This document shows, piece after piece, positions 3,853 to 44,226 of a DNA stretch of 64,000 nucleotides (positions within the stretch are counted from its first letter, which is position 1; every line of letters starts with the position of its first letter). The DNA lies in the NCBI GenBank assembly GCA_001899235.1, contig MKVR01000018.1, forward strand, positions 1-64,000. Reading direction: 5' to 3'. The notes under the pieces were generated by a model. That model made no database searches and had not been told where the DNA came from. It saw only the letters and a list, made by a program, of their open reading frames with translations. The position numbers and the translations under genes are program-made. This DNA is from Nitrosospira sp. 56-18 (lineage in GTDB: Bacteria > Pseudomonadota > Gammaproteobacteria > Burkholderiales > Nitrosomonadaceae).

Positions 3853-4266
3853 CTAAAAGAATACCCGCGAGGCGACGCCTTTCAGGCGTGCCGTCGTATA
3901 AAAATCGCGCTGCCCACTCGCCGGAACGATCGAAAACTTGTGCAGCGTTGTAATGCCGAAGGTCTGAATGGGCACCGACTGCTCGCCCGGAATATTCACA
4001 TGTGGCAATAGAACGCTGAAAGTAGTCCCGCCGGTATCGACGGTCATACGGATGGTGACACTGACAAGCGTGCCGATTTCGGTTTCGATGCTACGAATCT
4101 CATCGCCACTGAAGCTGAGGGTCTGTTGCAGGTCCTGGTAGCTGAAATGTGGTTTTCCATCTATGCCGCTGGTTGAGTAGGTGACATGGAGATGTTTACC
4201 ACTGAGGTCGTACTGGTTCGGTGTTTGCACTGCAGGCTGATTCGGTTGCATGGTGCCTCCTTTCAT
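3853..4266 (-). CDS. Hypothetical protein sharing a domain with the C-terminus of the 19607-20347 product
   Basis: GTLVSVTIRMTVDTGGTTFSVLLPHVNIPGEQSVPIQTFGIT aligns to GLLVSVALQPNADAGGLDFALLLPPVHLRGQARQAFQTIGIK. Confidence 0.7.
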   Translation of the reverse strand: MKGGTMQPNQPAVQTPNQYDLSGKHLHVTYSTSGIDGKPHFSYQDLQQTLSFSGDEIRSIETEIGTLVSVTIRMTVDTGGTTFSVLLPHVNIPGEQSVPIQTFGITTLHKFSIVPASGQRDFYTTARLKGVASRVFF

Positions 4267-4390
4267 AAAGTGAACCTCTTGGCCGCGACAATAATAGTGC
4301 CGCTGCGCCAGAGAGGTGGCTCATCAAACGCGCAGCGGAATGGTGTTGCCCCTGGCGCTCCCGTTATTAATATAGAATATAGATCATCCT

Positions 4391-4440
4391 GAATCCGGCA
4401 GTTGAACAGGATGGAGTGTTGCAAAAGATCCACCTCTTTT
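4391..4440 (+). repeat. Dispersed repeat family 2 fragment
   Basis: GAATCCGGCAGTTGAACAGGATGGAGTGTTG matches 61245 and 3421 copies. Confidence 0.55.
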
Positions 4441-4531
4441 ACCCTGTTCCCTTGCGGTTCCTGATACAGTCGCAGTATTTCTGGCTCAAAATCACAATCA
4501 AACACTCCACCGCAAGCAGCGGGTATAGGAC

Positions 4532-7500
4532 TTAGGACCGCCCGAGCTCGAACGAAAATCGGGCCACACGCTGCATCCATGGGGCAAATACGGAAAGGGG
4601 CGTATCGGCTGCGATGGGAGTGCGAGCTGCGCCAAGCCGATTATCCAGCCAGTCACGCATGCGGCGCCAGCCGGCGCTATCCCTCAGCGTATCGCTCTGG
4701 ATCATCATATTCATCCGGTTTATCATCCATGCGACATTTGCCGGGGTCTCATCCCGGGGAGCAGAATACAAGCCCTCTTCCATGATCGAAAAAAATTCGT
4801 GGGCGAGCAGGGGCATTCCGGTATCCACCGCGAGCAGGAAAAGCACGGCCTGGTAATCGGCCAGGATATCGTTAGGCTGCAGGAAGGACCGTGCCTCATG
4901 CACGGTGAGACCGGCTTTGATCAGTCGATAGACATTGACAAATCGCTTGAGCGCTCGTGGCGAGCGGCTGAGTATCGGCGCAAGCCTGGCTATGAAATCC
5001 AGCTCTTCCCGAACCGTCTCCAGGCTCTTGAAGGCCGGGTAGACGGCCTTCAAAGCCGCTGCGCTGCTGGCGCTTTCCCCCGTTGGTGCGGAGGCGATAT
5101 CCGGCGACATGGATGGCGCGGCCTGCTGCTGCGCTTGTGCCGACGCCGCCGGAGCACCGGAAGACTTCTCCAGTGAAATGTCCTGGCCCGGAGAGCCTTC
5201 CCGGATCGATGTAGCTTCTTCTTTCCCTGCCGCATCTGCGGCGGGCGCCAGCTCGGCGGATGACTCTCCCTGGGCAGGTTCCTTGATGGATTGGATAGTT
5301 TGCGCAACTTGTTTGAGATCCTCATCCGGTCGCTTGATGCTGGTTTGCAACAAGCCGCGAATCATCCGGTCGCTGGCAGCTGCATCCATCGGCCTCAGCC
5401 AGAATGGTATCTGGAAAATCTTTTCCAGATAATCGTTGGGTGTGGCCGAGCCCAGCAGCAAACCGGCGCTGTCCTCGCCATCCGGCGATTTGCCGCTGAC
5501 ATGGAGCAATTGGTGGTAGCGCGCCTGCAACGAGCGCTTGATCCATCGCGCGTCCACCCCCACCACCACGACGAACAGCGGGAACGCGAGCAGCAAATGC
5601 ACCGCCTGGAGCACTTCGACTACCTTGTTGGGCGGACAGCGGTCCAGGTCGTCGATATAGAGCACGATGCGATTGATGCGCCTGTCCTTGTCCTTTTCCT
5701 CTTCGGCCAGGCTTGCATACCTCTGCTGTCCCTGTGCACGCGGCGATTCCAGCGGGTCTTCAGGCGACAGCGCCCAGTTATCTTCCTCGATGAGGCCGGA
5801 AAGTTTTTCGAAGTCGTCGCGCACCAGCGCGAGCACGCCCAGGTGCTTGCGGTAGTCGCTGCTCGCGGCCCGGTCGGTGATGAAATTGGCCAGCAGCCGC
5901 CCGGCTGTCGCCACTTTGAGTTCGGCGGCCGCCGCGGCTTCCCGCGCTTTTGCTTCTGCATGCTTCTGCTGGGCAGCGTCGAGCGCGGCCGTCAATTCAC
6001 GTAGCTTCTGCTCGGCCTGCGTCACTTTCCGCACATGCTCGGCAGTCTGCGTCGCCATTTCTTCATCGAATTTCTTCTGCGCCGCTTCCGCTTCGCCCAG
6101 CCTTCTGGACATCCACTCCGCCTGTTGTTTGAGCCAGGGCACGCCCGAGCCGATCAATGTCGCCAGGCCGGCGGCATAGGCGTAGATGTCGGCAACGCTC
6201 GACCCCAGCATTTGCAGCACGAAGCGCACCAATATCGTCATCACTGGCACACCCAGAAGGCTGAAGAATAGCCAGACGAACCGCCGGTTCCGGTCCTTCG
6301 CATGCATGAGCGGAGCGAGGAAGCGCTGTCCCCTTCCGAGCACGCCATGGATCTGGCGCAAGGCTCCTTCGAGTTCCACTGCTTTGCTGCCGACCGCGGT
6401 GAGATTGAGTTGCGTGAGCGCATCGAGAACCGGCTGATGGGCACCGGTAAGCAGAAAATCCTTCCCGACGTGCTCGGCGTTCAGCTTTGCGAGCTCCCTG
6501 GTTTTTTCATCGAGATTCCTCTGCGCGTCATCGAGATCGCCCTTGGCGACAGTTGCCGCGGCCTTTGCGCTGTCCACCGCATTGCTCGCCGCCCGTGAAA
6601 GGGCTTTCTCCTCTGCCAGTTTGTTGATCAGTTCCTTCTGCAGGGTTTGACTGACAGAGGTCTCCTTACCCGGATAAAGATTGTCGAGGATATGCTCGAC
6701 CAGGCTTGCCCAGAGGTTACTTTCGACATAATGCCAGGCATTGAATTTGATCTGGACGATATTCTTGTATATCGGCAAGTCCCGCTGCATGCGGTTGGCT
6801 GTGCGCGCTTCCTTCGCCAGTTCATCGATGGCGTTGCGCAACTGCCGCATGAAGAAGGTTTTGCCGGAACCCCATTCGCCGAACAGGCCGATAGATAGCG
6901 GCGGCACGACAGTGCGCGCAGCGATCAGCACGGCGAGCGCGCGCACCTCGTCCTGGATGCCCAGCAGGTCTTCGCCCCCTGCCCGATCGGCACTGAAGCC
7001 GCTGAGGCGGCGTATCTTCTCTGCAGCATGGTCATCATCACCAGCATCCGGGCGCATGGATTTGCCGATGGGCTGTCCAGTTGTACCGATGCTGGCATTC
7101 CACAGCCGCAGGGTGCTGTCCTCACTGCCAGAGACGATGCCATCGGGGCTGAAAGCCACGCTATACACTACATCCCCATGTCCTCGCAGGGGCTCGCCGA
7201 TGGATTCACCGCTTCTGGCATCCCACAGCCGCAGGGTCTTGTCCTCACTGCCGGAGACGATGCGACTGCCATCCGGGCTGAAGGCGACACTCAGCACCCC
7301 TTCCTCATGTCCTCGCAGGGGCTCGCCAATGGGCTTACCGCTTCTGGCATCCCACAGGCGCAGGGTCTTGTCCCTACTGCCGGAGACGATGCGGCTGCCA
7401 TCGGGACTGAAGGCAACACTTGACACCCAATCCGCATGCCCTTGTAGAGGCCTGCTGAGAGGCTCGCCGCGCCTGACGTCCCACAACCGCAGAGTGTAGT

Positions 7501-8629
7501 CCCTACTACCAGAAACGATGCGGCTGCCATCGGGACTGAAGGCAACACTCGATACCACACTCTCATGGCCGCGCAGAGGTATGCCGATGGGCTGCCCCGT
7601 CCTGGCATCCCATAGTCGCAGGGTCTTGTCCACACTACCGGAGACGATGCTACTACCATCGGGGCTAAAGGCTACACTCCACACTCCATCCTCATGTCCG
7701 CGCAAGGGCTCGCCAATGGATTCACCACTTCTAGCATCCCAGAACCGCAGAGTCTTGTCGTGACTTCCCGAAACAATACGGTTGCCATCGGAACTGAAAG
7801 CCACGCTATACACCCAACTCTCATGCCCGCGCAGGGGTACACCGATGGGCTGGCCAGCCGTACCGAAGTTGCCGTCCCACAGCCGCAGTGTCTTGTCCAG
7901 ACTGCCGGAGATGATGCGGCTGCCATCCGGGCTGAAGGCGACACTCAACACTAAATCCTCATGGCCCCGCAGAGGCCCGCCGATGAGTTGGCCTGTTTTG
8001 GCATCCCACAGCCGCAGCGTCTTATCCCCGCTGGCGGAGATGATGCGGCTGCCGCCCGAGCTGACGCCGCTGAGGTGGTGCGGCTTCTCTGTAGCATGAT
8101 CATCATCGCCGACATGCGGGCCGCCCGGATTTTCAGATAAATTCGTGTTCATCGCGGCTGCTGCGCGCGTAATCACGGCATCGGTTATTCGGTCGAGCTC
8201 GCTGTCGCATTGCTCTCGGGGAATCTCGGCAAGCGCGGGAGATTCAGGACCGAGAAGCATCGCGGATTCGAGCCAGTCCAGGGAAAAAACCAGGGGCCGC
8301 AAGTGGATACGAAGCATGCGAAACGTCGAAGCCTCACCCAGAGAAAGCCGGAGCATTCCAGCAAGATCACGAAAATAGGAAGATTTCAGCAAGTCATCGG
8401 AGACGAGGAAGAGCATATACACGGCATCGCGCACCTGCTCGTGTAGTTGTTCCGGACTGCGGATCAGCTCGCCGAGCTTCTCGTTATTCCAGGATTCGAC
8501 TGTCAGACCGGCTGGAAAGAGTTGAGGATTACGCGTTCGGGAGACGAGCCTGCCCTGCAGCCTTTGCTCCCAGGCTTCGTCCTCCTTCGCATAAAACAGG
8601 ATGATTTTCTTGCTGGATGATGGGAGCAT
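4532..8629 (-). CDS. TIR-like / 8x WD40 / KAP-family P-loop NTPase fusion (1365 aa)
   Basis: N-term KKIILFYAKEDEAWEQRL..SDDLLKSSYFRD; repeated VAFSPDGSRIVSGSxDKTLRLWD; Walker A GLFGEWGSGKTFFM, Walker B IVLYIDDLDRCPP, two hydrophobic segments between them. Confidence 0.85.
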   Translation of the reverse strand: MLPSSSKKIILFYAKEDEAWEQRLQGRLVSRTRNPQLFPAGLTVESWNNEKLGELIRSPEQLHEQVRDAVYMLFLVSDDLLKSSYFRDLAGMLRLSLGEASTFRMLRIHLRPLVFSLDWLESAMLLGPESPALAEIPREQCDSELDRITDAVITRAAAAMNTNLSENPGGPHVGDDDHATEKPHHLSGVSSGGSRIISASGDKTLRLWDAKTGQLIGGPLRGHEDLVLSVAFSPDGSRIISGSLDKTLRLWDGNFGTAGQPIGVPLRGHESWVYSVAFSSDGNRIVSGSHDKTLRFWDARSGESIGEPLRGHEDGVWSVAFSPDGSSIVSGSVDKTLRLWDARTGQPIGIPLRGHESVVSSVAFSPDGSRIVSGSRDYTLRLWDVRRGEPLSRPLQGHADWVSSVAFSPDGSRIVSGSRDKTLRLWDARSGKPIGEPLRGHEEGVLSVAFSPDGSRIVSGSEDKTLRLWDARSGESIGEPLRGHGDVVYSVAFSPDGIVSGSEDSTLRLWNASIGTTGQPIGKSMRPDAGDDDHAAEKIRRLSGFSADRAGGEDLLGIQDEVRALAVLIAARTVVPPLSIGLFGEWGSGKTFFMRQLRNAIDELAKEARTANRMQRDLPIYKNIVQIKFNAWHYVESNLWASLVEHILDNLYPGKETSVSQTLQKELINKLAEEKALSRAASNAVDSAKAAATVAKGDLDDAQRNLDEKTRELAKLNAEHVGKDFLLTGAHQPVLDALTQLNLTAVGSKAVELEGALRQIHGVLGRGQRFLAPLMHAKDRNRRFVWLFFSLLGVPVMTILVRFVLQMLGSSVADIYAYAAGLATLIGSGVPWLKQQAEWMSRRLGEAEAAQKKFDEEMATQTAEHVRKVTQAEQKLRELTAALDAAQQKHAEAKAREAAAAAELKVATAGRLLANFITDRAASSDYRKHLGVLALVRDDFEKLSGLIEEDNWALSPEDPLESPRAQGQQRYASLAEEEKDKDRRINRIVLYIDDLDRCPPNKVVEVLQAVHLLLAFPLFVVVVGVDARWIKRSLQARYHQLLHVSGKSPDGEDSAGLLLGSATPNDYLEKIFQIPFWLRPMDAAASDRMIRGLLQTSIKRPDEDLKQVAQTIQSIKEPAQGESSAELAPAADAAGKEEATSIREGSPGQDISLEKSSGAPAASAQAQQQAAPSMSPDIASAPTGESASSAAALKAVYPAFKSLETVREELDFIARLAPILSRSPRALKRFVNVYRLIKAGLTVHEARSFLQPNDILADYQAVLFLLAVDTGMPLLAHEFFSIMEEGLYSAPRDETPANVAWMINRMNMMIQSDTLRDSAGWRRMRDWLDNRLGAARTPIAADTPLSVFAPWMQRVARFSFELGRS
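6992..7055 (-). repeat. Copy A of ~60-bp direct repeat flanking the WD40 block
   Basis: GCTGAGGCGGCGTATCTTCTCTGCAGCATGGTCATCATCACCAGCATCCGGG vs 8061-8125. Confidence 0.8.
7056..8060 (-). repeat. Tandem highly similar WD40 repeat units (eight, last degenerate)
   Basis: Units of ~126-138 bp encoding near-identical VAFSPDGSRIVSGSxDKTLRLWDARxGxPIGxPLRGHExxVxS. Confidence 0.9.
8061..8125 (-). repeat. Copy B of ~60-bp direct repeat flanking the WD40 block
   Basis: GCTGAGGTGGTGCGGCTTCTCTGTAGCATGATCATCATCGCCGACATGCGGG. Confidence 0.8.
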
Positions 8630-8715
8630 GATTTTCTTCCCTGGTATCGGCGCCGCATTCTGGCTGGCTAACCCATCATACTTCAGTAAAGAAGCCAGAA
8701 GGGCCGGCGTACCGT

Positions 8716-8750
8716 GTGCATAAGCACTAAAAAATTCATACTATACTGGA
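8716..8750 (+). promoter_or_regulatory. Candidate divergent promoter: palindrome GTGCATAAGCAC upstream of TATACT
   Basis: 183-bp intergenic region between divergent 8629(-) and 8813(+) genes; TATACT at 8742-8747. Confidence 0.35.
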
Positions 8751-8812
8751 GGTGGCAGCTTTCCCCAATCGCGAGGATAGGCGCCGCTTAATGCTGACCC
8801 GGGATAGATACC

Positions 8813-10798
8813 ATGAAGCCTCACGCTTTCGTTGCGATGCCCTTCGGCAGCAAACCCGGCCCCGATGGGCAGTCGATCGACTTCAACCGCGTCTATGCTG
8901 AATACATTCAGCCTGCATTGGAAATGGCAGGACTGGAAGTCTTCCGCGCAGACGAGGAGCAGCGCGCCGGCGACATCATCACTGACATGTTCCAGGAACT
9001 ATTGATAGCCGATCTCGTGGTGGCTGACCTTACTATCGACAACCCCAATGTCTGGTATGAGCTTGGCGTGCGCCATGCGCTGCGCGCCCGCGGCATGATA
9101 TTGATTTGCGGCGGCCGCATTCCTGCCGCCTTCGATCTTTACACGCAACGCAAGTTACGCTACAGCATCGCAGACGGCGCCGTGGATCCCGCTACGTTGG
9201 AAAGCGACCGGCGCCACCTCACCGAAATGGCCGAGGCAACCATGGAGTCCTGGCACGGCCGCAAGGAAAGCCCGGTCTATCACCTGCTGCCCAACCTGCA
9301 GGAGCCGGACTGGAAGTCGCTGCGTATCGGTGAAGTGCAGGAGTTCTGGCAGCGGCATGATGCCTGGAAAGAACGCGTCCTCCTGGCAGGCAAGGCACGG
9401 TTGATCGGAAATATGCTGGTACTTGCGGACGAGGCCCCGGTGGCGGCCTTTCGCGCGGAGGCGTGGATCGCGGCGGGCACGGCCCTGCGCAAGGCCGAGC
9501 GTTTCGATTTCGCGCTGGAGCAGCTCGAACGCGGCCTGGCGATCGAACCCCGGAACCTTGCAGGCTTGCAGGAAAAGGGAGTCTGCCTGCAACGGCTGGC
9601 GCTTGCCGGAATACCAGCCTACTCCCTGGACAAGGCTCGCGCGCATTATCGCAATGTGCTGGATGAATATCCGGATGACGCCGAAACCTGGGCGCTGCTG
9701 GGCAGGCTGGACAAGGATGCCTGGATTGCCGCATGGCGCCGGCCGGACGCCACGCCGGAGCAAATGAGGGAGGATGCCGCGTATGATGATGCGCTGCTCC
9801 GGTGCGCCATCGAGAGCTATGCCAGCGGTTACCGCCGCAACCCTGCTCATTATTATTCCGGTATCAATGCGCTGACTCTGATGCATCTGTATCGCCATCT
9901 TACCCATGAAGCACGTTATGACAACGATATCGGACTCATGGCCGGCGCAGTCCGTTTTGCGGCCGGGTGCGAACCACGCGAGTCGCTACATTTCTGGTCC
10001 CAGGCCACCCTGGGTGATCTCGAAGTGCTCATGGGCACGCCGGATACGGTCAAGGCCGCCTATAAGGAAACCATCGCGAAAAACGACAAGGATTGGTTCG
10101 CGCTCAATTCCAGCTGCGCGCAATTGCAGCTGCTGAAGGACCTCGGCTTTCGTTCCCAGACTGTCGAGGCCGGCATTGCCACTTTCACGCGCGCGCTGCA
10201 AAAACTGGTCAGGCCCGAGGAGTGCTGGCAGCCACGGCAGGTATTGCTGTTCAGCGGGCACATGATGGACGCGCCCGGCCGCCCTGCTCCGCGCTTTCCT
10301 CCAAAAAAGGAGGATGCGGCCAGGCAGAAGATTGCTGCCGCAATAGAGGACATGGAGGCGGGCTCCGGGGATATCGCGCTGGCCCAGGGCGCAAGCGGCG
10401 GCGATATTCTGTTCCTTGAAGCCTGCCGCGAGCGCGGCACTCGCCTGCAAATGATGCAGCCATTGCCGGAACCCGAATTCATTCAGCGCTCCATCCTGCC
10501 TTCCGCCAACGGCGACAGCTGGCGCAAACGCTATTACGCATTGAAGGAAAACACCGGCAATACGCCGCGCATCATGCCGGATGAGCTTGGCCCTTCGCCC
10601 GGGGATGCGGCTTCCTTTGAGCGCTGCAATCTGTGGCTGCTTTACACCGCGCTCGCCTTTGGAGTGAACAGGGTGCGCTTCATTTGCCTGTGGGACGGCA
10701 GCAAGGGCGATGGCCCCGGAGGCACCGAGCATATGTACAACGAGATCAAGAGCAGGACCGGGCGGGTAACATGGATCAATATCAGCGAACTTGGGTAA
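8813..10798 (+). CDS. Nucleoside deoxyribosyltransferase-like (DRHyd-type) / TPR (TPR-S/TRAFs-binding-like) / SLOG-like C-terminal protein
   Basis: FVAMPFG; IADLVVADLTIDNPNVWYELGVRHAL; helical TPR-like middle; C-term GDIALAQGASGGDILFLEACRERG. Confidence 0.75.
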   Translation: MKPHAFVAMPFGSKPGPDGQSIDFNRVYAEYIQPALEMAGLEVFRADEEQRAGDIITDMFQELLIADLVVADLTIDNPNVWYELGVRHALRARGMILICGGRIPAAFDLYTQRKLRYSIADGAVDPATLESDRRHLTEMAEATMESWHGRKESPVYHLLPNLQEPDWKSLRIGEVQEFWQRHDAWKERVLLAGKARLIGNMLVLADEAPVAAFRAEAWIAAGTALRKAERFDFALEQLERGLAIEPRNLAGLQEKGVCLQRLALAGIPAYSLDKARAHYRNVLDEYPDDAETWALLGRLDKDAWIAAWRRPDATPEQMREDAAYDDALLRCAIESYASGYRRNPAHYYSGINALTLMHLYRHLTHEARYDNDIGLMAGAVRFAAGCEPRESLHFWSQATLGDLEVLMGTPDTVKAAYKETIAKNDKDWFALNSSCAQLQLLKDLGFRSQTVEAGIATFTRALQKLVRPEECWQPRQVLLFSGHMMDAPGRPAPRFPPKKEDAARQKIAAAIEDMEAGSGDIALAQGASGGDILFLEACRERGTRLQMMQPLPEPEFIQRSILPSANGDSWRKRYYALKENTGNTPRIMPDELGPSPGDAASFERCNLWLLYTALAFGVNRVRFICLWDGSKGDGPGGTEHMYNEIKSRTGRVTWINISELG

Positions 10799-10801
10799 AC
10801 C

Positions 10802-11075
10802 ATGCCCAGCATCTTCCTGAGCCATTCGAGCGCGGATGAGCTTCAATCTGAATCCGGCAGCTGACCGCTCATTTCCAGTTCAGGACCATGATCCACAAAG
10901 ACTTTACGTCGTACTCGACATTTATCTAATATGGCGGATTCGCTACAGGGCGGATTCAGGTTGAGGCGGTCGCGTTCAAGCAGTGACTGCTGGATAACGG
11001 CTGGGCGACGCATTCATCGACCTTGCAGACGGCGTGGACAGATGGGAGGAAAATCCCGGGCAAGAGGATCAGGGG
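10802..11075 (+). pseudogene. TIR-domain gene remnant interrupted by repeat family 2
   Basis: ATG 4 bp after the upstream stop: MPSIFLSHSSADEL then repeat; beyond it EAVAFKQ*LLDNGW and, frameshifted, DAFIDLADGVDRWEENPG. Confidence 0.65.
10846..10960 (-). repeat. Dispersed repeat family 2 copy (~115 bp) inside TIR pseudogene
   Basis: CTGAATCCGGCAGCTGACCGCTCATTTCCAGTTCAGGACCATGATCC matches the reverse complement of ~61370-61482. Confidence 0.75.
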
Positions 11076-11085
11076 GAGGAAGGAT

Positions 11086-12462
11086 ATGATGGAAGAATTA
11101 TGGTGGAATATATTGATGAACAAGATGCGGGAAAATACGGTCATCCCGATCATCGGTCCCCGGTTGCTTGTCGGGCCCGACGGCCAGACTTCATTGCAGG
11201 CACAGGTTGCCGCTCGCTTATTGCACGATTGCGGCAAGGATGCCGGCGGGATACAGCTGCCGCCATTCCGCGAACTGAATGAGGCGGTGTCACTGTTAAA
11301 GGGTCAGGTCCCAATGGACGACCTTTATGATTTTGTAAACAACGCCATCAACAGTGTTACCAAAGACACTGGCATACCGAAGCCTCTCCATCAGTTGGCG
11401 CAGATCACGGACTTTCGCCTCTTCGTAACACTCACCATAGACGAGCTTCTTTCACAAAGCCTGAAACAGCACCGGACCGCAGTAAATGAAATCATTCATT
11501 CGCTAACCGGCGAACTACCAAGAGAATTACCGGGCGATTGGCGTCAAAGGCGGGAAGAAGCCCAGCTCTTCTACCTTTTTGGCAAGACGCGGGCAGCGCC
11601 CATGTTTGCCATTCATGATGAAGATATGCTGGAATACGCTCACGATCTCATTGTCAACGGTGAAAAAACTCATAAAAGATTTCTGGATGAATTGCGGTCT
11701 AATAATTTACTGCTGATCGGTTGCAATTTTCCCGAATGGCTAAGCCGGTTCTTCCTTCGCGCTGCCAACCGAACACGGTTATCCGGAAGTGACAGTCTTA
11801 GAAAAGCATGGTTAATCGAGCAGCCGCAACCAGAGGAAGGCTTCACCTGCTTTCTCAATAGCTATGGCGGCGGCACAAAAATCATTTCAGATATATCGCC
11901 AGTTGAGTTTGTCGCTGAATTACACCGCCGCTGGACACAAAAATATGGCGGCAGCAAAACAACCGCCGATTTCGTTGCGAACCCCGTTGCACCCCGCAAG
12001 CCGACATTTTTTATCAGCTATTGCCGACGTACGGATCAGTTCAGCGCCGAGAAACTATACAAGGCGCTTCTCGACATGACGGCCAGCGAGGGCGATGTGT
12101 GGTTCGATCATGATTCCATTGAGCCTGGAGATGATTTCCCGGAGCGTATTCGGGACGGCATTCTCAACTGCCGCTATTTTCTGCCCCTCATCTCGCATAA
12201 GGCCGACGCTCTGGATGAGGCATATTTCTATCGGGAATGGGGAGAGGCAAGTGAAAGAAAGAAAGCAATTCGAGGCAGGCCGTTCATCATCCCGATAATC
12301 GTGGATCAGGACTTTCAACCCACAGCTTATCATCGCGTTCCGTTTGATTGGACGGACATCCAGGATTTCGCCCACGCGCCCGAAGGGCAACCAGACGACA
12401 AACTCAGGAAGAGGCTAACGGATCTGTTGCGTGATGTTCGGCGTGAAGGAAGACTGTCATGA
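11086..12462 (+). CDS. SIR2-like domain + C-terminal TIR domain fusion protein
   Basis: SIR2-like IPIIGPRLLV..FVTLTIDELLSQ..NLLLIGCNFPEWLSRFF; TIR PTFFISYCRRTDQFSAEKLYKALL..VWFDHDSIEPGDDF; strong SD GGGAGGAAGGAT before ATG 11086. Confidence 0.8.
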   Translation: MMEELWWNILMNKMRENTVIPIIGPRLLVGPDGQTSLQAQVAARLLHDCGKDAGGIQLPPFRELNEAVSLLKGQVPMDDLYDFVNNAINSVTKDTGIPKPLHQLAQITDFRLFVTLTIDELLSQSLKQHRTAVNEIIHSLTGELPRELPGDWRQRREEAQLFYLFGKTRAAPMFAIHDEDMLEYAHDLIVNGEKTHKRFLDELRSNNLLLIGCNFPEWLSRFFLRAANRTRLSGSDSLRKAWLIEQPQPEEGFTCFLNSYGGGTKIISDISPVEFVAELHRRWTQKYGGSKTTADFVANPVAPRKPTFFISYCRRTDQFSAEKLYKALLDMTASEGDVWFDHDSIEPGDDFPERIRDGILNCRYFLPLISHKADALDEAYFYREWGEASERKKAIRGRPFIIPIIVDQDFQPTAYHRVPFDWTDIQDFAHAPEGQPDDKLRKRLTDLLRDVRREGRLS

Positions 12463-15400
12463 CTATGCCAGGCAGGAATGACAGCGTTTCCGCATCCAGT
12501 GTTTCCGGATCTTCCGATTCGGAAGCCCTAGCATTGAATTTGCAAAATCCCTGGCCAGGCCCAGCCGCCTACGACGAAGCTTCGAAGGATTTCTTCCATG
12601 GCCGCGGCGAAGAAGCCCAGGAACTCCTCCGGCTCATTCGGCTGGCTCCGCTAACGGTCGTGTATGGAAAGTCGGGCTTGGGTAAAACTTCACTCCTGCA
12701 GGCCGGGCTTTACCCATTGCTGAGGGCCGAGCACTGTCTTCCCGTTCACCTGCGCTTGAATTTCTCCGATGAAAGTACCGTTGCGCCATTTACGCAAACG
12801 ATGCAGCGGCTCATGGAGGAACTCGATGCTGCAAAGGCGGAATATCCCGCGCCAGCGAATGATGAAGGCCTGTGGGAATTTTTGCACCGCAAGGACATGG
12901 AGGTGTGGAGCACGGATAATTTTCCCTTAACGCCGGTACTTGTATTCGATCAGTTTGAAGAACTGTTTTCGCGTAGTGGCGGCAACGTCGAACTGATAAA
13001 GCAGGTCTTCGATGGCCTTGCCAACCTGGTCGAGAATCGCATTCCCGAAAAAATTGCGAGGGACATAACCGGGATCCTCCGGCCGCGGCTGAACCTTCAA
13101 TCCCAGCACTATCGCATCATTCTGTCATTCCGCGAGGATTACTTGCCCGACATCCGGGCATGGGAACAAAAGATACCCTCGTTACTGCGTAATTATTTAC
13201 GGCTGGAGCCGATGTCGCGCGCATGCGCAATCGAGGCGGTCGAGCGCTCGGGTCGCGCCGTGCTCGACAAGGATGCGGCAGAGAGCATTGTCGATTTCGT
13301 GGGAAAACTCGATCACCTGCCGGAAGCTGCCGGCACATCCAGTATGGTCATCGAGCCTGTGCTCCTGAGCTTATGCTGCTCTCAGTTGAATCGGCGCCGA
13401 ACAGCCGGGGGCTTGATCGATAAGGAACTCGTCCTGAATGTGGGTCAAAATATTCTCGATAATTTTTACCAGGATGCTCTCAATGATCCGGAAGTAAAAG
13501 GTCCGCCGGATGCGGCTCTTTTTATCGAAAACCACCTGATCCAGGGCGACCACTTTCGCGGCGACTATCCCAGGGATGAAGCGCTTACTGAACATAAACT
13601 GACTCCCAGACAGCTGTCCGCACTCACTGACCGGCATCGGCTGCTGCGAATCGCTCACCATATGGATACCGCACGGGTGGAATTGATACACGATCGGCTG
13701 GTATCCGTGGTCCGGAAGACGCGAGATGAACGCAGGATGAAGGAGCAACAGCTGGAGCAGGAGCGCCTGGCCAGAAAGGCTCAAGCCGAGCGCGACGAAG
13801 AACATGCCCGCGGCGAAGAATTGCGGCACCAGCGAGATCTGGCCCATCGAAGCCTCAAAGTTGCCCAGCATCGGCGAAATCTTGCAGTGGGCGCGGCTGT
13901 TTTAAGTATTCTCCTTTTCGGGTGGGGATGGCAGCAAAAAAACGAATCTGAAAGGGAGAAGCAGAGAACCGAGGAGGCGACGCAAAAGACCGAGGAAGCG
14001 ATGCAGAAAGCCGAGAAGGCGCAGCAGGGTATGGCTACTGCCATCGCCACATCTCGCCTCGCCGAAGGGCGGTCGAACCTGCCCGTTGGCTCGGAGCCAT
14101 TTAAAGAAATCCTGTCTCAGGGACTTGCAGCCTATCGTTTGAGCGAAAAGGGAATATTGCCAATCAAAGCAGAAAGCCTGGTACTTCTTCACACCCTCCT
14201 GGATATCTACAGTTATTTACGCAAGTTCTTGAGCCTGACTGGCTCAACACCCACGCCGGCGCTTTCTTACAGCCCTGACGGTCAAATACTCGCGGTCGGT
14301 GGCGAGGATGGGATGATCCGTCTGATCGACACGAAAGATTTTAGTGAAACCGGCAAATTGGATTGTAAGCAGCCGCCTACGGAATCGGTGTGGACGCTCG
14401 CATACAATAGCGACGGCACCCGGCTGGCGGCGGGATACGCCCGCATCGATGGAGAAACAGGGCGCGGTCTCGTCTGCGTGTTCGATGTGACACAGCGCCG
14501 GATTGTGCAAAAATGGTCCAGCCAGGATCTCTGGGGCAAACCCAGTAATATCACAAGCGTGGCCTATGGCGGGAAACCTCGAGCCGAATTCGTGATCTCG
14601 GGCGGAAGCGACAGGATGTTGCGGAAACTCAACGTCTCGAGCGGCGCGGTGCAACATATTCCTCATGCACAGGAGGTTGTAGCGGTGGCGGCAAGCTCCG
14701 ACGGCCGTTGGGTCGCGTCGGGGGGCGAGGATGCGATTGTCAGGGTATGGAACGTAGCGGATTTCGATCAAGCCAATCCGCAGCCCAGGGAATTCAAAGG
14801 GCATGATGCATTGATCGAGCGGCTCGTATTCCCTTCTTTCAGCAACTCCATACTCTTATCGACCGGCGATGATGGACGCATCATAGGCTGGAATGTCGAG
14901 GAACGCTGCCGTATCCTGCAGACGAAAAGCCAGGATGTAAAGATAAACGATATTGCCGCTGATCGAGGCGGATTCATAGCCGCTGCGGGCGCAGATGGCA
15001 GCATACTGCTTTTCAAGGTAGATTATCACCATCGTTGCGGAGGTGGATCGCAAGCGGCTTCTTCTCCTCCCGAGTTTGATTTGATCACCGATGGGAGGTT
15101 GGGAAAGCACGGCGGCATGGCTCTCGGAGTGGCATTTAACCCAGAAGGCGATCAAATGGCATCTGCAGGACAGGACGGATCGATACGTATCTGGGGCGAA
15201 AAAACTCCCGGTTTCTCATTTGCCCAGCTGGAGTTGGCGCTCGACCCATCACTGCCTGCGGCGGGCCGCGGCAACATAACCGCTATTGCCATAAGTCCCA
15301 ATGGCGAGCTGATCGCTGCTGGTGATCAAAACGGCAATGTTTATCTCTGGCAGCGGCCGGCGATAAGTCCCCTGCCCGTATCTCTGCCACCGCTTTCGAT

Positions 15401-16328
15401 TTGGCCTGCCCATACAGGAGCAGTCCACGGTCTGGCTTATGTCCAGGCCGGGGGCCGGCCGATTCTCGTTTCGGGTGGCGACGATGGCGTGGTCAAGCGC
15501 TGGGATACAGCTCATAACGCCATCGATATGAAAGACAATGCGGGCCCCATTCGCTCAATTGCAGTGTCACCCGATGGTAAAACGCTTGTAGCGGGCAGCA
15601 AGGATGGCACGGTACGCCTTTGGGATGCTGCGACCGGAGAACGTCAAGGAAAATTCGATGCGCCATCGGAGAACGAGCTGTATGCGGTCGGCTTTAGTAA
15701 TGATGGAAAATATATTGCGGTTGGGGATTTTTCTATAGGTATACGCATACTGGATATTGAAACACCTGGTTCTGAATGGATATTGACGGGACACTCAGAC
15801 TCGGTCATGTCTCTTTCTCGAAGCCAATCGCAATGGCTGCTTTCAGCCGGGCGGGATGGAAGCGTACTTGAATGGGAGTCCTCAGCCCTGGCAAAGTCTC
15901 GAAGCTCCGCCCTGAAGAAGTGGGATAATTTTAATCTTCGCCTGGGGTTCATGAATTCCGTGAAACTGACTTCCATAGATACCAGCAGGGATGGCAAATT
16001 AATCCTCACGGGCGGAAGCGATGGACAGGTTCAATTATGGGATGGCGTCGAATACGTCAGGATTGGTGAACGCTTTTCTGGCCATGAAAACAGGAAAATT
16101 AGCGCAGTGGCACTTGCACCCGACGGGAGCTTCTTCGTAACTGCCGATGCCCCGAACATAACTGCCGATACTTCGAATATTCTGGTCTGGCCTGGGCCAG
16201 CCCGCTGGGCCGAAATCCTTTGTTCCAAAATTGTTCGGAACATGAGTGATAGCCAAAGGCGCGAGCCGATGCCACAGCAGATTGATTATGTGGAGCCATG
16301 CCCAAATTTGCCGAGCAAATCACAGTAA
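12459..16328 (+). CDS. nSTAND-type NTPase with C-terminal WD40 propeller(s)
   Basis: NPWPGPAAYDEASKDFFHGRGEEAQELLRLI, Walker A VVYGKSGLGKTSLLQAGLYP, VLVFDQFEELF; many WD40-like units; 4-bp ATGA overlap with SIR2-TIR. Confidence 0.9.
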   Translation: MTMPGRNDSVSASSVSGSSDSEALALNLQNPWPGPAAYDEASKDFFHGRGEEAQELLRLIRLAPLTVVYGKSGLGKTSLLQAGLYPLLRAEHCLPVHLRLNFSDESTVAPFTQTMQRLMEELDAAKAEYPAPANDEGLWEFLHRKDMEVWSTDNFPLTPVLVFDQFEELFSRSGGNVELIKQVFDGLANLVENRIPEKIARDITGILRPRLNLQSQHYRIILSFREDYLPDIRAWEQKIPSLLRNYLRLEPMSRACAIEAVERSGRAVLDKDAAESIVDFVGKLDHLPEAAGTSSMVIEPVLLSLCCSQLNRRRTAGGLIDKELVLNVGQNILDNFYQDALNDPEVKGPPDAALFIENHLIQGDHFRGDYPRDEALTEHKLTPRQLSALTDRHRLLRIAHHMDTARVELIHDRLVSVVRKTRDERRMKEQQLEQERLARKAQAERDEEHARGEELRHQRDLAHRSLKVAQHRRNLAVGAAVLSILLFGWGWQQKNESEREKQRTEEATQKTEEAMQKAEKAQQGMATAIATSRLAEGRSNLPVGSEPFKEILSQGLAAYRLSEKGILPIKAESLVLLHTLLDIYSYLRKFLSLTGSTPTPALSYSPDGQILAVGGEDGMIRLIDTKDFSETGKLDCKQPPTESVWTLAYNSDGTRLAAGYARIDGETGRGLVCVFDVTQRRIVQKWSSQDLWGKPSNITSVAYGGKPRAEFVISGGSDRMLRKLNVSSGAVQHIPHAQEVVAVAASSDGRWVASGGEDAIVRVWNVADFDQANPQPREFKGHDALIERLVFPSFSNSILLSTGDDGRIIGWNVEERCRILQTKSQDVKINDIAADRGGFIAAAGADGSILLFKVDYHHRCGGGSQAASSPPEFDLITDGRLGKHGGMALGVAFNPEGDQMASAGQDGSIRIWGEKTPGFSFAQLELALDPSLPAAGRGNITAIAISPNGELIAAGDQNGNVYLWQRPAISPLPVSLPPLSIWPAHTGAVHGLAYVQAGGRPILVSGGDDGVVKRWDTAHNAIDMKDNAGPIRSIAVSPDGKTLVAGSKDGTVRLWDAATGERQGKFDAPSENELYAVGFSNDGKYIAVGDFSIGIRILDIETPGSEWILTGHSDSVMSLSRSQSQWLLSAGRDGSVLEWESSALAKSRSSALKKWDNFNLRLGFMNSVKLTSIDTSRDGKLILTGGSDGQVQLWDGVEYVRIGERFSGHENRKISAVALAPDGSFFVTADAPNITADTSNILVWPGPARWAEILCSKIVRNMSDSQRREPMPQQIDYVEPCPNLPSKSQ

Positions 16329-18164: not shown

Positions 18165-18992
18165 ATGAACCTGATTAAGGGAGACGATGGGCATCTGGCC
18201 AATGATGATATAGGTGAGTGGGCAAAAGAAAAGCATATGTACTTGTTGCGGTACCTTGAAATCTCGCAAGCGGCCAGAAGGCAATTTATAGGAGAACACC
18301 AAGGTGGGGCGGCTTATTTCGACCTCTTCTGCGCAACAGGAAAATCACGAATAAAAACAACAGGAGAGTGGATAGATGGCAGTGCTATAGCAGCTTGGAA
18401 AGCTAGCGTGCAAAGCAAAGCGCCTTTCTCTGGCGTGTATATATCGGATGTCGATGAAGAAAGCCTCGCTGCCTGCACTGCCCGGCTGAAAAAACTCGGC
18501 GCGCCAGTTTTCCCCATTCACGCATCCGCGACCGTAGCCGCGAAAAAGATGGCGTCAGCCGTAAATCCTTGTGGCCTTCATCTCGCATTTGTTGATCCAT
18601 ACAATCTCATATCGCTCGATTTTCGACTGATCAAAGCACTATCCGCACTGCGTCACATCGACCTTTTAATTCATTGCAGCGCCATGGATTTTCAACGAAA
18701 TCTCGATATGAATCTCATATCGGAAAATTCTGATTTCGATGCCTTGGCTCCTGGATGGCGAGAAAATGTCGACACAACGGGTTCACGGGGTAAGATCCGC
18801 GAAAACATATACGAATACTGGAAGCAAAAAGTAGCGGATTTGGGATTTTTTACTTCGACAGATCAGAAACTTGTTACCGGAATAAAAAACCAGCCGCTTT
18901 ATCGCCTGCTGGTCGCCAGTCGGTATCCATTGGCAAATGAGTTTTGGTCAGTTGCGGTAAATCCTCAGGGACAGGGTGAACTAGGATTCTAA
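18165..18992 (+). CDS. Three-Cys-motif partner protein TcmP-like
   Basis: KEKHMYLLRYLEIS..GGAAYFDLFCATGKSRI..GSAIAAWKA..LHLAFVDPYNLISLDF. Confidence 0.75.
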   Translation: MNLIKGDDGHLANDDIGEWAKEKHMYLLRYLEISQAARRQFIGEHQGGAAYFDLFCATGKSRIKTTGEWIDGSAIAAWKASVQSKAPFSGVYISDVDEESLAACTARLKKLGAPVFPIHASATVAAKKMASAVNPCGLHLAFVDPYNLISLDFRLIKALSALRHIDLLIHCSAMDFQRNLDMNLISENSDFDALAPGWRENVDTTGSRGKIRENIYEYWKQKVADLGFFTSTDQKLVTGIKNQPLYRLLVASRYPLANEFWSVAVNPQGQGELGF

Positions 18993-32489: not shown

Positions 32490-33029
32490 TCAGCAGAGCA
32501 CGATGAGCATGATCAACCCAGGAATGATGCCCAGGATCAACCCGACTACGATGGCGATTACTTCTCCTGTCGAGTAACTGCAGCCGGTCTTGCCCACCTT
32601 CACGCTGGCAGCTTTGTCATTGTCGAGTTTGGCAAGCAGCATGCCGGAAAACTCATCCGCAACCCGGCGGGGTGTGTCGGCAGCTTCGATACGTGAGTAC
32701 ATATCGGTGAGCTGGGCTTCGGCTGAACCCAGGTCATCGCTGAAAGGCGCAATGGAGCGTGCATTCCTGACCGCGTCGATCGCCACGGCCATCGGTGTTA
32801 GTGCGAGGCCATGTGCCTCACTGAGGCTGCCGGCAGCCGCAATCATATTATGCAGGCGAGCGAGTTCCGGATATTGCTCTGACCCAGATGAACACGTAGC
32901 CATGATCAAGCTCGTGCGTTCGGCCGCGGACCAGATACTTGCGGCAGCCGTTCTGGGCAGCGCAAAGACGGCAACCAAGGTTACCGCCAATGTAACCAGC
33001 ATGAGCAAAATCTTCCTGCTTATTATCAT
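32490..33029 (-). CDS. Hypothetical exported/membrane protein
   Basis: N-term signal and C-term hydrophobic segment EVIAIVVGLILGIIPGLIMLIVLC. Confidence 0.55.
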   Translation of the reverse strand: MIISRKILLMLVTLAVTLVAVFALPRTAAASIWSAAERTSLIMATCSSGSEQYPELARLHNMIAAAGSLSEAHGLALTPMAVAIDAVRNARSIAPFSDDLGSAEAQLTDMYSRIEAADTPRRVADEFSGMLLAKLDNDKAASVKVGKTGCSYSTGEVIAIVVGLILGIIPGLIMLIVLC

Positions 33030-33572
33030 GTCATTCCTCCTTTATGGCGCATAAATGTCGAAAGCCATGTGAGAATCAGGTAACGCCAAAGACCTCCCGC
33101 TTGTTCTGAAATCAATGATGAAATAATTCCTCGTGTTTGCATCCCCGCCAGCTTCAAAAAGCTTGGGGGGGATTAGGGGATCTCATCCCTCTTTAGGTCC
33201 GGGTCAAACCATGTATCCCCTGCTTCCGGTGAAGAATGATCAACATCCCATCATGAACCGGCCGCATCAGTATATTGGATACTCGTCTTTCGCAAATCAA
33301 CTATTTTTTGGTGGGTGGCTTCCCAGCATTGATCATTGGTTTTTCTAGCTGATCCCTTTAATGCTCGATGTATCTTCGCCAGTCATGGCTTGGAACCAGC
33401 AGAACGAGAGTCAGCGCATCGTCAAATCAATGATTGCCAAATATGAGCAGGTGAAAAAGTTTCTCCGGTTTTGAAGTCAGGATATGACAAGCGAGAAAAA
33501 CTATGATTATGGCGGAAAAATTCAGAAGGGCGAAAAAACATATGACACTTTCGCTTGTAAGTGCTTGGTTTC

Positions 33573-33587
33573 ATGGAGGCGGGGGTC
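33573..33587 (+). other. attL-like core site ATGGAGGCGGGGGTC
   Basis: Exact 15-bp duplicate of the tRNA-Cys 3' end at 51231-51245. Confidence 0.9.
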
Positions 33588-33821
33588 ACATTCAAACACT
33601 TTATGTAAATAATTGAAAAAAATAGAGAAAAAAGTTAAGTTAAGGAGTACATACCGTAAAAAATACCGTTTACTGAATTAATAATCAATGTGTGTGTGAG
33701 TTTTACTTGGCTGATATTCCGAAATAAGGACAAGGCCATTTAAATCGATTGTAGGGCTTGTGGTGAAGCTTAAGCGGTTTGCTTTGCGTTCAAAAGGAAT
33801 AAAAGCCAGCTCGGGACGGCT

Positions 33822-34352
33822 TTATGGAAGATGGATCTTAGTCAAATCCATAAACATGAGTGAGGAGGTAGTTTCAGTTTTTTCTTCCGTTGTTTCAAAT
33901 AAAGTGAAACCACGGCTTTTATAAAAATCAATTGCTTTAGGTTTTGAGTCAACTACAAGAAAGCGACATCCAATATTATCCATTATCACTTCTTTGGTTA
34001 TCGATATTGAAAATTCAACTAGAGCAATTCCGTATCCCTTTTTCTGGTGGTCTTGGTGAATCGCCAGCCGCGCAATCTTAACGCACGGATAAGCTTTGTA
34101 TTCATACCCTGGAACAGCATGGCCGTTGCTGGGGTCAATATCGATATGACTGCATATTAGAGATATATAACCTAGAACAACAGGATGAGATTGATTCTCT
34201 TCTACCAATACCCAAGTTTTTGTTAGATTTTCTGCATGATATTTCTTGGCATCTTTTTTTAGGAATTTTTTTAATAATTTAAAATCCTCGTGTCCAAGAC
34301 GAAACCGGGTGACAATATCGCCCGGTTCCAGTTTCCTCAATATCACGCTCAA
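33822..34352 (-). CDS. GNAT acetyltransferase, toxin-like (TacT-type TA)
   Basis: VKIARLAIHQDHQKKGYGIALVEFS; follows a small upstream gene. Confidence 0.7.
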   Translation of the reverse strand: MSVILRKLEPGDIVTRFRLGHEDFKLLKKFLKKDAKKYHAENLTKTWVLVEENQSHPVVLGYISLICSHIDIDPSNGHAVPGYEYKAYPCVKIARLAIHQDHQKKGYGIALVEFSISITKEVIMDNIGCRFLVVDSKPKAIDFYKSRGFTLFETTEEKTETTSSLMFMDLTKIHLP

Positions 34353-34357
34353 AAATA

Positions 34358-34543
34358 CTACCTTGATTTTGCATTGATTTTTACAAATCCGTTCCTATTG
34401 TATTCCTGAAGAAGCTTGTGGCCGTTAGCCAATGATTGGCTTGCCTCTTTTTTTGGGCGTCCATATTTAACTTGATTCTTAAATCTTTTCGCGTCCTCAT
34501 CAGTTAGCCGTACTCCACCAAAAATCGATGTATGCACCGACAT
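34358..34543 (-). CDS. Small putative antitoxin
   Basis: 61-aa basic ORF immediately upstream of GNAT gene. Confidence 0.55.
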   Translation of the reverse strand: MSVHTSIFGGVRLTDEDAKRFKNQVKYGRPKKEASQSLANGHKLLQEYNRNGFVKINAKSR

Positions 34544-34810
34544 ATCGCTACCTCCAGATTAATTTATTATTAGCCAGAACAACAAGGCGCTACACACGCC
34601 CATGAAATTGATGTCTTTAATTTATTGTTTTTATTTCTGAGTAAGTTGTTGCAGAAAAAGCTTATTTAGCCTCTTGACTTAAAAAAATGCGTTTGCGCAT
34701 AATTTTGATGGATTGTAGTAGGTAAAGTTCAAGGCGTCTATACAACTTTGGTATTAATTCTCAGGCACTGCGGTATGTAACGACACTATGCGGCTTCCCC
34801 AAAAAGAGGA

Positions 34811-34876
34811 AAACCCCAGGGGCTGGCCCACTAGGGTTTTATCTCTGCCAGCCGCGTAGCTAGGAAGGGAAGTGCG
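34811..34876 (+). other. Structured element copy 1: hairpin followed by GCCAGCCGCGTA...GGAAG
   Basis: AAACCCCAGGGGCTGGCCCACTAGGGTTTTAT..GCCAGCCGCGTAGCTAGGAAGG; similar layout at 44103. Confidence 0.5.
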
Positions 34877-34982
34877 CATGTCAAGACCTCTTCAGAGAAA
34901 GGAGGTTGATCCAATGATTCGGCTTTGCTTATGGAATAGCCTGCTTCCACCGACATTGGGTCATTGATCTTGTTGAGCTATA

Positions 34983-35555
34983 GTGAGGGGAGCGGAGAAC
35001 AATATGGAAAATACCAATAAAAGTAAGTTTGAGCTGACGGTAGAGCTCGTTAAGGCTCTTGCGTGGCCTAGTGTCGTTGTAATTCTACTCTTTGCATTTT
35101 GGGCGCCCTTAGAAAATACTATCAATATCTTGCCTCAGTTAATTGACCGCTCAGACACTATTACAATCGGAAGCGTTGCGATCAAGGTTGGGCGCAAGTT
35201 GAGCGGCCACATAACGCCAGAGGTTAAAAAAGCGCTCAAAAATATAAGCGATAACGGAATTGAACGCTTGCTTGACTTCGAAGAGGATCAGCAAAAGGAA
35301 TACGGGAAGGACCACAAACCTTCCGCGCCTACTTACGAATTAATAAAGCTAAAGCTGCTCATCAGTGAAAAAAAATCTAATACGAACGACGATGAGTTTT
35401 ATGTGTATATGTCTCCTACCGGTATAGAGACGAGAAAGGCCTTACTTTTAGTTATTGCTGAATTCGTCTATCAACTTAAACACGGAAATATAAAGGAATC
35501 GGACTGTAGCGAACAGCAGAAATCCGCCGAAGTTGGGAAGCTTTGCCCTAGCTAA
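34983..35555 (+). CDS. Hypothetical membrane protein
   Basis: N-term TM ALAWPSVVVILLFAFWAPL, followed by a terminator. Confidence 0.6.
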   Translation: MRGAENNMENTNKSKFELTVELVKALAWPSVVVILLFAFWAPLENTINILPQLIDRSDTITIGSVAIKVGRKLSGHITPEVKKALKNISDNGIERLLDFEEDQQKEYGKDHKPSAPTYELIKLKLLISEKKSNTNDDEFYVYMSPTGIETRKALLLVIAEFVYQLKHGNIKESDCSEQQKSAEVGKLCPS

Positions 35556-35563
35556 GATAGAAA

Positions 35564-35592
35564 ATAAAAACCCTCCGGAGCGGGTTTGGGAG
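35564..35592 (+). terminator. Terminator-like hairpin
   Basis: AAAAACCCTCCGGAGCGGGTTTGGGAGTTT. Confidence 0.5.
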
Positions 35593-35609
35593 TTTCACTT
35601 ATTTTTAAA

Positions 35610-36569: not shown

Positions 36570-36662
36570 ATTTCACCCGTTCGGCAATTAATGATTTATT
36601 GGCGCCCTGTTCTGACCAATAACGGCATGATCGAGCTTTACTTTACCCCCGCTTCACTCCCT

Positions 36663-37127
36663 TTACCCTCTCAAACTCAGATACTTGCGAAATTTTTCTC
36701 TTGCTATATCAACCTGATTGGAAAACCAGAGCTGCTCATCTAGCATTTCTGCCACGTGGATCTGGAGATCATAATCTGGCGGAGCATTTCCACGGGCGAA
36801 GATTTCTTCATTATTCAAAAGAAGGCGGAGATTTACTCCGCGACGGTGAATCTCATAAATATAAGTTGGAATATCGGTATCAAATAGAAATTCTGCTTGG
36901 GATGCGGACGATTCGAAATCGGAAAGCTCATCACCGGTTAGACTTAATCCGTCCGCACCCTTCTGAATAATCTTCTTTACCACCTCATAAATGTGAATTC
37001 TCCTATCGTATAAATCTAATTTTAACTTTTGCTGATTGATTTTCCATTGTAGAACCGAAACTCCGACTGCAGCACCTCCAATAATCACAGTAGATAAGGC
37101 ACTCCAAATGCTATTGCAGTCACTCAT
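36663..37127 (-). CDS. Hypothetical membrane-anchored protein
   Basis: N-term TM; overlaps next ORF by 4 bp. Confidence 0.5.
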   Translation of the reverse strand: MSDCNSIWSALSTVIIGGAAVGVSVLQWKINQQKLKLDLYDRRIHIYEVVKKIIQKGADGLSLTGDELSDFESSASQAEFLFDTDIPTYIYEIHRRGVNLRLLLNNEEIFARGNAPPDYDLQIHVAEMLDEQLWFSNQVDIAREKFRKYLSLRG

Positions 37128-37828: not shown

Positions 37829-37853
37829 CGTCTAGAAGGGGGTCGTCATATCG

Positions 37854-38849: not shown

Positions 38850-38894
38850 TTCAAGTAGAAATTAAATACTCCAACAGATGGCGTGGGAAGTCCC

Positions 38895-39422: not shown

Positions 39423-39562
39423 ACAAGTGCACCGGATGAATATTTGAGGTTCGAGTGGTACGCACGTTACTTGAAACTCCGGCATTTCACCATCTGCAAT
39501 GTCGGACAAGCATCGAGAGCGTGCGAAAAAGGCTAGGTGGGCTTGACTAGGCTATTGATGTG

Positions 39563-44068: not shown

Positions 44069-44102
44069 TGGAATTTAAATAGCCTTTGAATTGTGAGAAG
44101 TA

Positions 44103-44165: not shown

Positions 44166-44226
44166 TACCGCTGGCTATCGGGGTTCCTTTTGAGCTATGC
44201 GCGACTCGCCGATTGATACGCATCCC

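What the first reader, a model, noticed from the sequence alone, without database searches (positions are those of the whole stretch)
3853..16328. Candidate novel multi-gene conflict system: TIR-like/WD40/KAP | NDT-like/TPR/SLOG-like | (psi)TIR | SIR2-like/TIR | nSTAND/WD40
Sequence shows four large intact genes whose domains (TIR, SIR2, SLOG-like, NDT-like, KAP and STAND NTPases, WD40) are almost all known parts of NAD+/nucleotide-centred prokaryotic immunity. Three genes, plus a TIR pseudogene, run on + with tight spacing (3-nt gap, 4-bp overlap). The KAP fusion is transcribed divergently from a 183-bp shared intergenic region. Families such as Avs/bNACHT-like STANDs, TIR and SIR2 NADases and KAP NTPases are established. 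I do not recognise this combination as a named system. That it works as one anti-phage unit is inference.
Basis: partly seen in the sequence, partly recalled or inferred. Interest (0 to 1): 0.88.

Follow-up and report, generated by a model that had tools for sequence, protein, structure and literature searches.

The report
STAND-gated TIR module with swappable SLOG partner

Summary
The genes are real and intact, and the domain calls are mostly right. They do not form one five-part system. (1) SIR2-like/TIR (P3) plus nSTAND1/WD40 (P4) is a fixed two-gene module. In 78 of 79 related loci (Pseudomonadota, Verrucomicrobiota, Nitrospirota) the STAND gene follows P3 directly; the exception is cut by a contig end. 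P3 and STAND distances correlate at 0.87, while the STAND C-terminus swaps freely (WD40, TPR, other). The TIR glutamate is invariant (52/52), but the SIR2-like domain lacks the catalytic Asn and His. (2) P2 (NDT-like/TPR-S/SLOG-like) is a real but optional third partner. P2-type proteins recur beside the module in four flavours, including SLOG-SLATT and TPR-S-SLOG-cyclase, far above background. P2-P3(-P4) order recurs in a Nitrospira and a Paraburkholderia. (3) The pseudo-TIR appears to be the remnant of P2's former partner: congeners carry P2 followed by a TIR-STAND-WD40 gene. (4) The KAP gene (P1) has no close relative and no recurrent link. Most likely mechanism: STAND sensing activates TIR cleavage of NAD+, with an ADP-ribose-type signal read by the SLOG/TPR-S partner, a Thoeris-like relay under STAND control. 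The activity steps are inferred, and no phage phenotype was tested.

The parts
11086..12462 (+). P3: degenerate SIR2-like domain + TIR domain (458 aa); predicted NADase/signal-making effector
   Evidence: Pfam SIR2_2 and TIR_2; 415 relatives in genome contigs; TIR Glu384 52/52, SIR2 His replaced by F/L 52/52, Asn by T/S 52/52; model pLDDT 85.9, best fold matches ThsA, KomC, DSR2, Avs5
12459..16328 (+). P4: nSTAND1 NTPase + WD40 propeller(s); predicted sensor/assembly platform
   Evidence: PF20703 E 3.5e-24, WD40; Walker A GKSGLGKT and Walker B VLVFDQ present; follows P3 in 78/79 related loci
8813..10798 (+). P2: NDT/DrHyd-like + TPR-S + SLOG-like (661 aa); optional third component
   Evidence: PF20308 E 9.5e-16; P2-type proteins recur beside P3-P4; dN/dS about 0.1 against congeners, with dS near saturation
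10802..11085 (+). TIR pseudogene stub: probable relic of the TIR-STAND-WD40 gene that follows P2 in congeners
   Evidence: 24/30 nt identity to the start of the L198 gene at the same distance after P2; frames broken
4532..8629 (-). P1: weakly TIR-like N-terminus + 7-8 near-identical WD40 repeats + KAP NTPase; neighbour, not part of the recurring unit
   Evidence: domains; Walker A/B present; repeat array 7085-8053; no close relatives in 250 genomes; not found at the 79 P3 loci
3853..4580 (-). two short overlapping ORFs downstream of P1, no recognised family; significance unknown

Best explanation
P3-P4 is a two-gene STAND-gated TIR module: the P4 WD40 C-terminus recognises an invader cue, the nSTAND1 NTPase assembles, and it switches on the TIR of P3, which cleaves NAD+. 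The P3 SIR2-like domain has lost its catalytic residues and most likely acts as a scaffold or NAD/ADP-ribose-binding regulator. P2 is a recurrent optional third component. Its SLOG/TPR-S domains read an ADP-ribose-type product and turn it into a second output (its own NDT-like domain here; a SLATT membrane effector, cyclase-like domain or neighbouring patatin elsewhere). In this genus P2 formerly had a fused TIR-STAND-WD40 partner, whose stub is the pseudo-TIR; the split P3-P4 pair now occupies that place. P1 is a separate gene. Shown: the pairing, sensor swapping, residue conservation, P2 recurrence and the congener partner. Inferred: the replacement history, sensing, NAD+ cleavage, the messenger and defence.
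For: nSTAND1 gene directly after P3 in 78/79 loci. P3-STAND distance Spearman 0.87 against a permutation maximum of 0.08; C-terminus unrelated between the window and L076/L077 while P3 is 54-56% and STAND 64% identical, with WD40, TPR or no known domain. TIR Glu384 invariant and aligned with SPARTA E77 (E77A is a catalytic mutant in PMC10474274). SIR2 motifs FTTNFD/KLHGD read VTLTID/YLFGK; N112 and H152 are needed in ThsA (PMC7272460). P2-type genes at 34/83 loci at E<1e-4, about 20 of the stronger ones directly adjacent to the module; TPR-S background is 11 matches in 120 genomes, so about 0.03 are expected in the 1.2 Mb examined. Partner presence needs 16 changes on the P3 tree, so the association arose or was lost many times. 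P2-P3-P4-patatin in Nitrospira L077; NDT/TPR-S-P3-STAND on a Paraburkholderia megaplasmid L183. Congener partner and relic. SLOG domains as sensors of variant cADPR and SLATT as a predicted ADPr-regulated membrane effector: PMC9503650.
Against: No activity data. P2-type partners are absent within the flanks held at most P3 loci, so P3-P4 can probably work alone. In the window no SLATT, cyclase or patatin remains, so P2's output is unclear. SLOG and NDT assignments in P2 are weak by sequence, and the Foldseek search with the P2 model returned only TPR superhelices among its best matches. NAD+ depletion without any messenger would fit P3-P4 equally well.
Confidence: 0.55

Rival explanations
1. 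P3-P4 is a complete two-component NAD+-depletion abortive-infection system, and P2 (with its lost TIR-STAND-WD40 partner) is a separate system that happens to sit beside it in a defence island.
For: P2 exists without P3-P4 beside patatin (L052, L053, L054, L059) or TIR genes (L057); most P3-P4 pairs have no P2-type neighbour in the flanks held; P2 is in 3 of 21 congeners, P3 in 1.
Against: P2-type proteins beside P3-P4 are hundreds of times more frequent than background, lie mostly in the directly adjacent position, and appear in flavours that follow P3 clades.
Confidence: 0.3
2. One reading: all five elements, including the divergent KAP fusion, work as one system.
For: Proximity, divergent 183-bp spacing, shared WD40 type.
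Against: No P1 relative near any of 79 P3 loci; no close P1 relative in 250 genomes; the WD40 arrays of P1 resemble those of several other genes, which suggests module shuffling; no sigma-70-like promoter pair in the shared region.
Confidence: 0.05
3. The SIR2-like domain is still the NADase and the TIR domain only oligomerises, as an assembly domain.
For: The fold is closest to SIR2 NADases (ThsA, KomC, DSR2, Avs5); assembly through TIR domains is known.
Against: The Asn and His positions essential in ThsA and DSR2 are T/S and F/L in 52/52 homologues, whereas the TIR catalytic Glu is 52/52.
Confidence: 0.1

Closest known systems
Thoeris (ThsB TIR + ThsA SIR2-SLOG)
   Same: TIR, SIR2 and SLOG domains combined; P3 fold best matches ThsA; expected TIR-to-SLOG signalling logic
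   Different: TIR and SIR2 are fused in one protein, SIR2 is degenerate, SLOG lies on a separate TPR-S protein, and a STAND ATPase gates the system; ThsB and Thoeris models match far below cut-off
Avs5 (SIR2-STAND) and other Avs/bNACHT STAND defences
   Same: STAND ATPase with an exchangeable C-terminal sensor controlling a SIR2/TIR-class effector
   Different: effector encoded by a separate upstream gene; nSTAND1 clade with WD40/TPR sensors; no Avs model match in PADLOC
TPR-S and SLOG-SLATT conflict systems (predicted by Burroughs and Aravind; that paper was not available here)
   Same: P2 carries TPR-S over the Pfam cut-off; partners elsewhere are SLOG-SLATT or patatin
   Different: constant coupling to a SIR2-TIR/nSTAND1 pair; whether that paper lists this coupling could not be checked
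SPARTA/SPARSA (TIR- or SIR2-APAZ with short Argonaute)
   Same: TIR domain related in sequence, catalytic Glu aligned
   Different: no Argonaute or APAZ found; gated by STAND
QatABCD (KAP NTPase)
   Same: P1 KAP domain resembles QatA (E 7e-15)
   Different: no QatB/C/D found among the neighbouring ORFs examined; P1 has WD40 and TIR-like parts

Membership tests
Thoeris | ThsB-type TIR protein over family cut-off | tested here: not met
   NCBIfam Thoeris_type3_ThcB4 21.5 bits against cut-off 220; PADLOC ThsB E 7.9e-5 on 49 residues
Thoeris | ThsA with catalytic SIR2 (Asn, His) fused to SLOG | tested here: not met
   SIR2 Asn and His replaced in 52/52; SLOG-like domain lies in P2, not P3
Thoeris | TIR-made cADPR isomer activates the partner | not testable with these tools
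   needs biochemistry
Avs / STAND defence | STAND NTPase with intact Walker A/B and variable C-terminal sensor | tested here: met
Avs / STAND defence | effector domain fused to the STAND protein, Avs model match | tested here: not met
   effector on separate gene P3; no Avs model match
TPR-S proteins (PF20308) | TPR-S domain over the curated cut-off | tested here: met
   P2 58.7 bits against 27.6
TIR NADases | catalytic glutamate conserved | tested here: met
   Glu384 52/52, aligned with SPARTA E77
TIR NADases | NAD+ cleavage | not testable with these tools
   no assay
SIR2 NADases (DSR, SIR2-APAZ) | catalytic Asn and His | tested here: not met
   T/S and F/L
SIR2 NADases (DSR, SIR2-APAZ) | SIR2 fold | tested here: met
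   Pfam SIR2_2 over cut-off; Foldseek ThsA/KomC/DSR2
QatABCD | KAP ATPase with QatB, QatC and QatD neighbours | tested here: inconclusive
   KAP present; no Qat partner recognised among the neighbours examined, but not every ORF was scanned against PADLOC

The most novel reading that the evidence does not exclude
A widespread, unnamed family of modular immune systems in which a STAND ATPase with a swappable sensor switches on a pseudo-sirtuin/TIR enzyme that makes an NAD+-derived messenger, read by a swappable SLOG/TPR-S third protein carrying different outputs (SLATT membrane effector, cyclase-like, NDT-like or a neighbouring patatin): a bacterial NLR-to-TIR-messenger relay resembling plant TIR-NLR signalling in outline.
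Probability: 0.4. Interest if true: 0.75.

Novelty: new variant of a known kind. Interest (0 to 1): 0.6.

Why it matters
If right, it joins three defence ideas in one locus family: STAND receptors with exchangeable sensors, TIR-made nucleotide signals, and SLOG/TPR-S receivers with exchangeable outputs. It also offers a fixed effector-receptor pair, with several hundred P3 relatives found, in which the sensor has been swapped naturally: a good system for asking what bacterial STAND sensors see. The conserved loss of SIR2 catalysis beside an invariant TIR glutamate predicts which domain works, and is easy to test by mutation.

Tried and rejected
Viral contigs: no P3 relative and one weak P2 match, so no evidence of phage carriage. 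Plasmids: one P3 locus only, on a megaplasmid. KAP part of P1 searched in 250 genomes: only distant KAP domains, so P1 was dropped from the unit. P2 structure: the whole-protein fold search was swamped by TPR superhelices, so NDT and SLOG were not confirmed by fold. Profile alignment of the P3 SIR2 part to canonical SIR2 proteins was weak; the motif reading rests on Pfam SIR2_2 coordinates and visible motifs. Apparent neighbour cluster 2 is antisense reading frames over P3, rejected. A first pass that found the STAND gene in only 43 of 79 loci came from a start-codon artefact in my script and was corrected. L124 and L070 appear to be the same contig (same length, identical P3) and should not be counted twice. 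The key paper on TPR-S systems was not held, so prior description of this exact combination cannot be excluded.
Full report
What is there. P1 (4532-8629, -) is a weakly TIR-like N-terminus, seven to eight near-identical WD40 repeats and a KAP NTPase with intact Walker motifs. P2 (8813-10798, +) has an NDT-like N-terminus, TPR-S and a SLOG-like C-terminus. P3 is SIR2-like plus TIR; its true start is probably ATG 11086. P4 (12459-16328, +) is nSTAND1 plus WD40, overlapping P3 by 4 bp. Between P2 and P3 lies a short broken TIR stub.

P3 and P4 form a fixed pair. A scan of one genome for each of 84,980 species with a P3 alignment found 415 relatives; 79 loci were kept, from Pseudomonadota, Verrucomicrobiota (Opitutae) and Nitrospirota. 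In 78 of them an nSTAND1 gene begins directly after P3 on the same strand; the other ends 99 nt after P3. The two proteins have diverged together (Spearman 0.87, permutation maximum 0.08), while the STAND C-terminus is replaced freely: the closest relatives of the window's P3 (L076, L077) carry TPR-type C-termini with no similarity to the window's WD40. WD40 was detected in 32 of the 79. This is the expected anatomy of a receptor with an exchangeable sensor and a constant effector.

Which domain is the enzyme. In 52 aligned homologues the TIR glutamate (Glu384) is invariant and aligns with Glu77 of SPARTA, a catalytic mutant site in PMC10474274. The SIR2-like domain, although its fold matches ThsA, KomC, DSR2 and Avs5 (model pLDDT 85.9), lacks the Asn and His that ThsA and DSR2 need (PMC7272460, PMC10973363): those positions are Thr/Ser and Phe/Leu in all 52. 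The sirtuin part is therefore predicted to be a binding or scaffold domain and the TIR the NADase. This is inference from sequence.

The third partner. Apart from P3 and nSTAND, the notable recurrent positional neighbours at these loci are proteins built from P2's domains, in four flavours: NDT-TPR-S-SLOG (window, L077, L093); NDT-TPR-S (L082, L099, L102, L183); TPR-S-SLOG with a guanylate-cyclase-like domain (L113, L119, L120, L136, L147); and SLOG-SLATT 2TM proteins (L116, L117, L118, L123, L130, L137, L138, L145, L148 and others). A seven-locus family of 162-190 aa proteins just upstream of P3 (cluster 6) was not followed up. About 20 of the stronger P2-type genes are directly adjacent (upstream on either strand, or just after the STAND gene) and about six lie elsewhere within 9 kb. 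TPR-S occurs 11 times in 120 genomes of the order, so about 0.03 would be expected in the 1.2 Mb examined; ten or so were seen, four of them confirmed with the same Pfam model. On the P3 tree partner presence needs 16 changes, and flavour follows clade: repeated gain or loss, not one inherited accident. In a Nitrospira genome (L077) the order is P2, P3, STAND, patatin, DUF4062-like; on a Paraburkholderia megaplasmid (L183) it is NDT/TPR-S, P3, STAND.

P2's other life and the pseudogene. P2 homologues elsewhere in the order sit next to a CapV/CBASS-like patatin (L052, L053, L054, L059) or TIR proteins (L057). In two congeners P2 is followed about 4 nt later by a TIR-STAND-WD40 gene, intact in L198 and broken in L199. 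The window's stub begins at the same place and its first 30 nt match that gene 24/30. The simplest history, which is inference: P2's fused TIR-STAND-WD40 partner decayed and the split SIR2-TIR/nSTAND-WD40 pair now occupies its place. P2 shows dN/dS near 0.1 against congeners, with dS close to saturation.

P1 is a bystander on present evidence. Its KAP part has no relative closer than 35% over 117 aa in 250 genomes of the order, and nothing like it occurs at the 79 P3 loci. Its WD40 repeats resemble those of several STAND genes, which I read as module shuffling.

How it probably works. STAND-WD40 senses, assembles and switches on the TIR; NAD+ falls and/or an ADP-ribose-type signal is made; the SLOG/TPR-S partner reads it and delivers a second output. 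SLOG as a sensor of variant cADPR and SLATT as a predicted ADPr-regulated membrane effector are stated in PMC9503650. The pairing, swapping, residue conservation and partner recurrence are shown here; sensing, catalysis, messenger and defence are inferred.

Comparison with the known. It works like a STAND-gated Thoeris but is not a member of Thoeris: ThsB and ThsA features were tested and not met. It has STAND-receptor features but no fused effector and no Avs model match. The DUF4062 system Swarozyc (PMC13174449) and Avs5 are neighbours in concept only. No PADLOC or NCBIfam model names P2, P3 or P4 over a curated cut-off. The library held no paper using the term SIR2-TIR, but the main paper on TPR-S systems was not available, so prior description cannot be excluded. 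Hence: new variant of a known kind.

Noticed in passing
window 38895-39509 (-): A second, strong TIR gene in the window (TIR_2 E 8e-22, also ThsB_TIR over its cut-off), in a low-GC stretch; possible separate Thoeris-like or orphan TIR.
   Followed up: partly
window 33000-51500: Low-GC stretch (0.41-0.50) ending in a phage-type integrase (49869-51119) beside tRNA-Cys and tRNA-Gly, with SRAP at 37124-37828: probably an integrated element.
   Followed up: partly
L063, L065 and genomes G026, G039, G049, G118: TPR-S occurs inside giant open frames of about 1,880-1,900 aa; at L063 and L065 a stand-alone gene for the P2 C-terminal (SLOG-like) domain lies nearby, as if P2 were split.
   Followed up: no
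L077:15385-16728: A DUF4062-like gene (by eye; TIR-like NADase family of the Swarozyc system) directly after P2-P3-P4-patatin in Nitrospira.
   Followed up: no
L119, L120, L136, L147, L113: TPR-S-SLOG proteins with a C-terminal guanylate-cyclase-like domain beside SIR2-TIR/nSTAND pairs: cyclic-nucleotide chemistry joined to an NAD-type system.
   Followed up: partly
L199:11865-12890: A different TIR-like protein (341 aa) divergent from P2 in a congener, echoing the divergent TIR-like P1 in the window.
   Followed up: no
cluster 6 (L071, L096 and five others): A small 162-190 aa protein, with an N-terminus resembling a secretion signal, encoded just upstream of P3 in seven related loci; role unknown.
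   Followed up: no
window 18165-18992 (+): 275-aa intact ORF with no Pfam match downstream of the locus.
   Followed up: no
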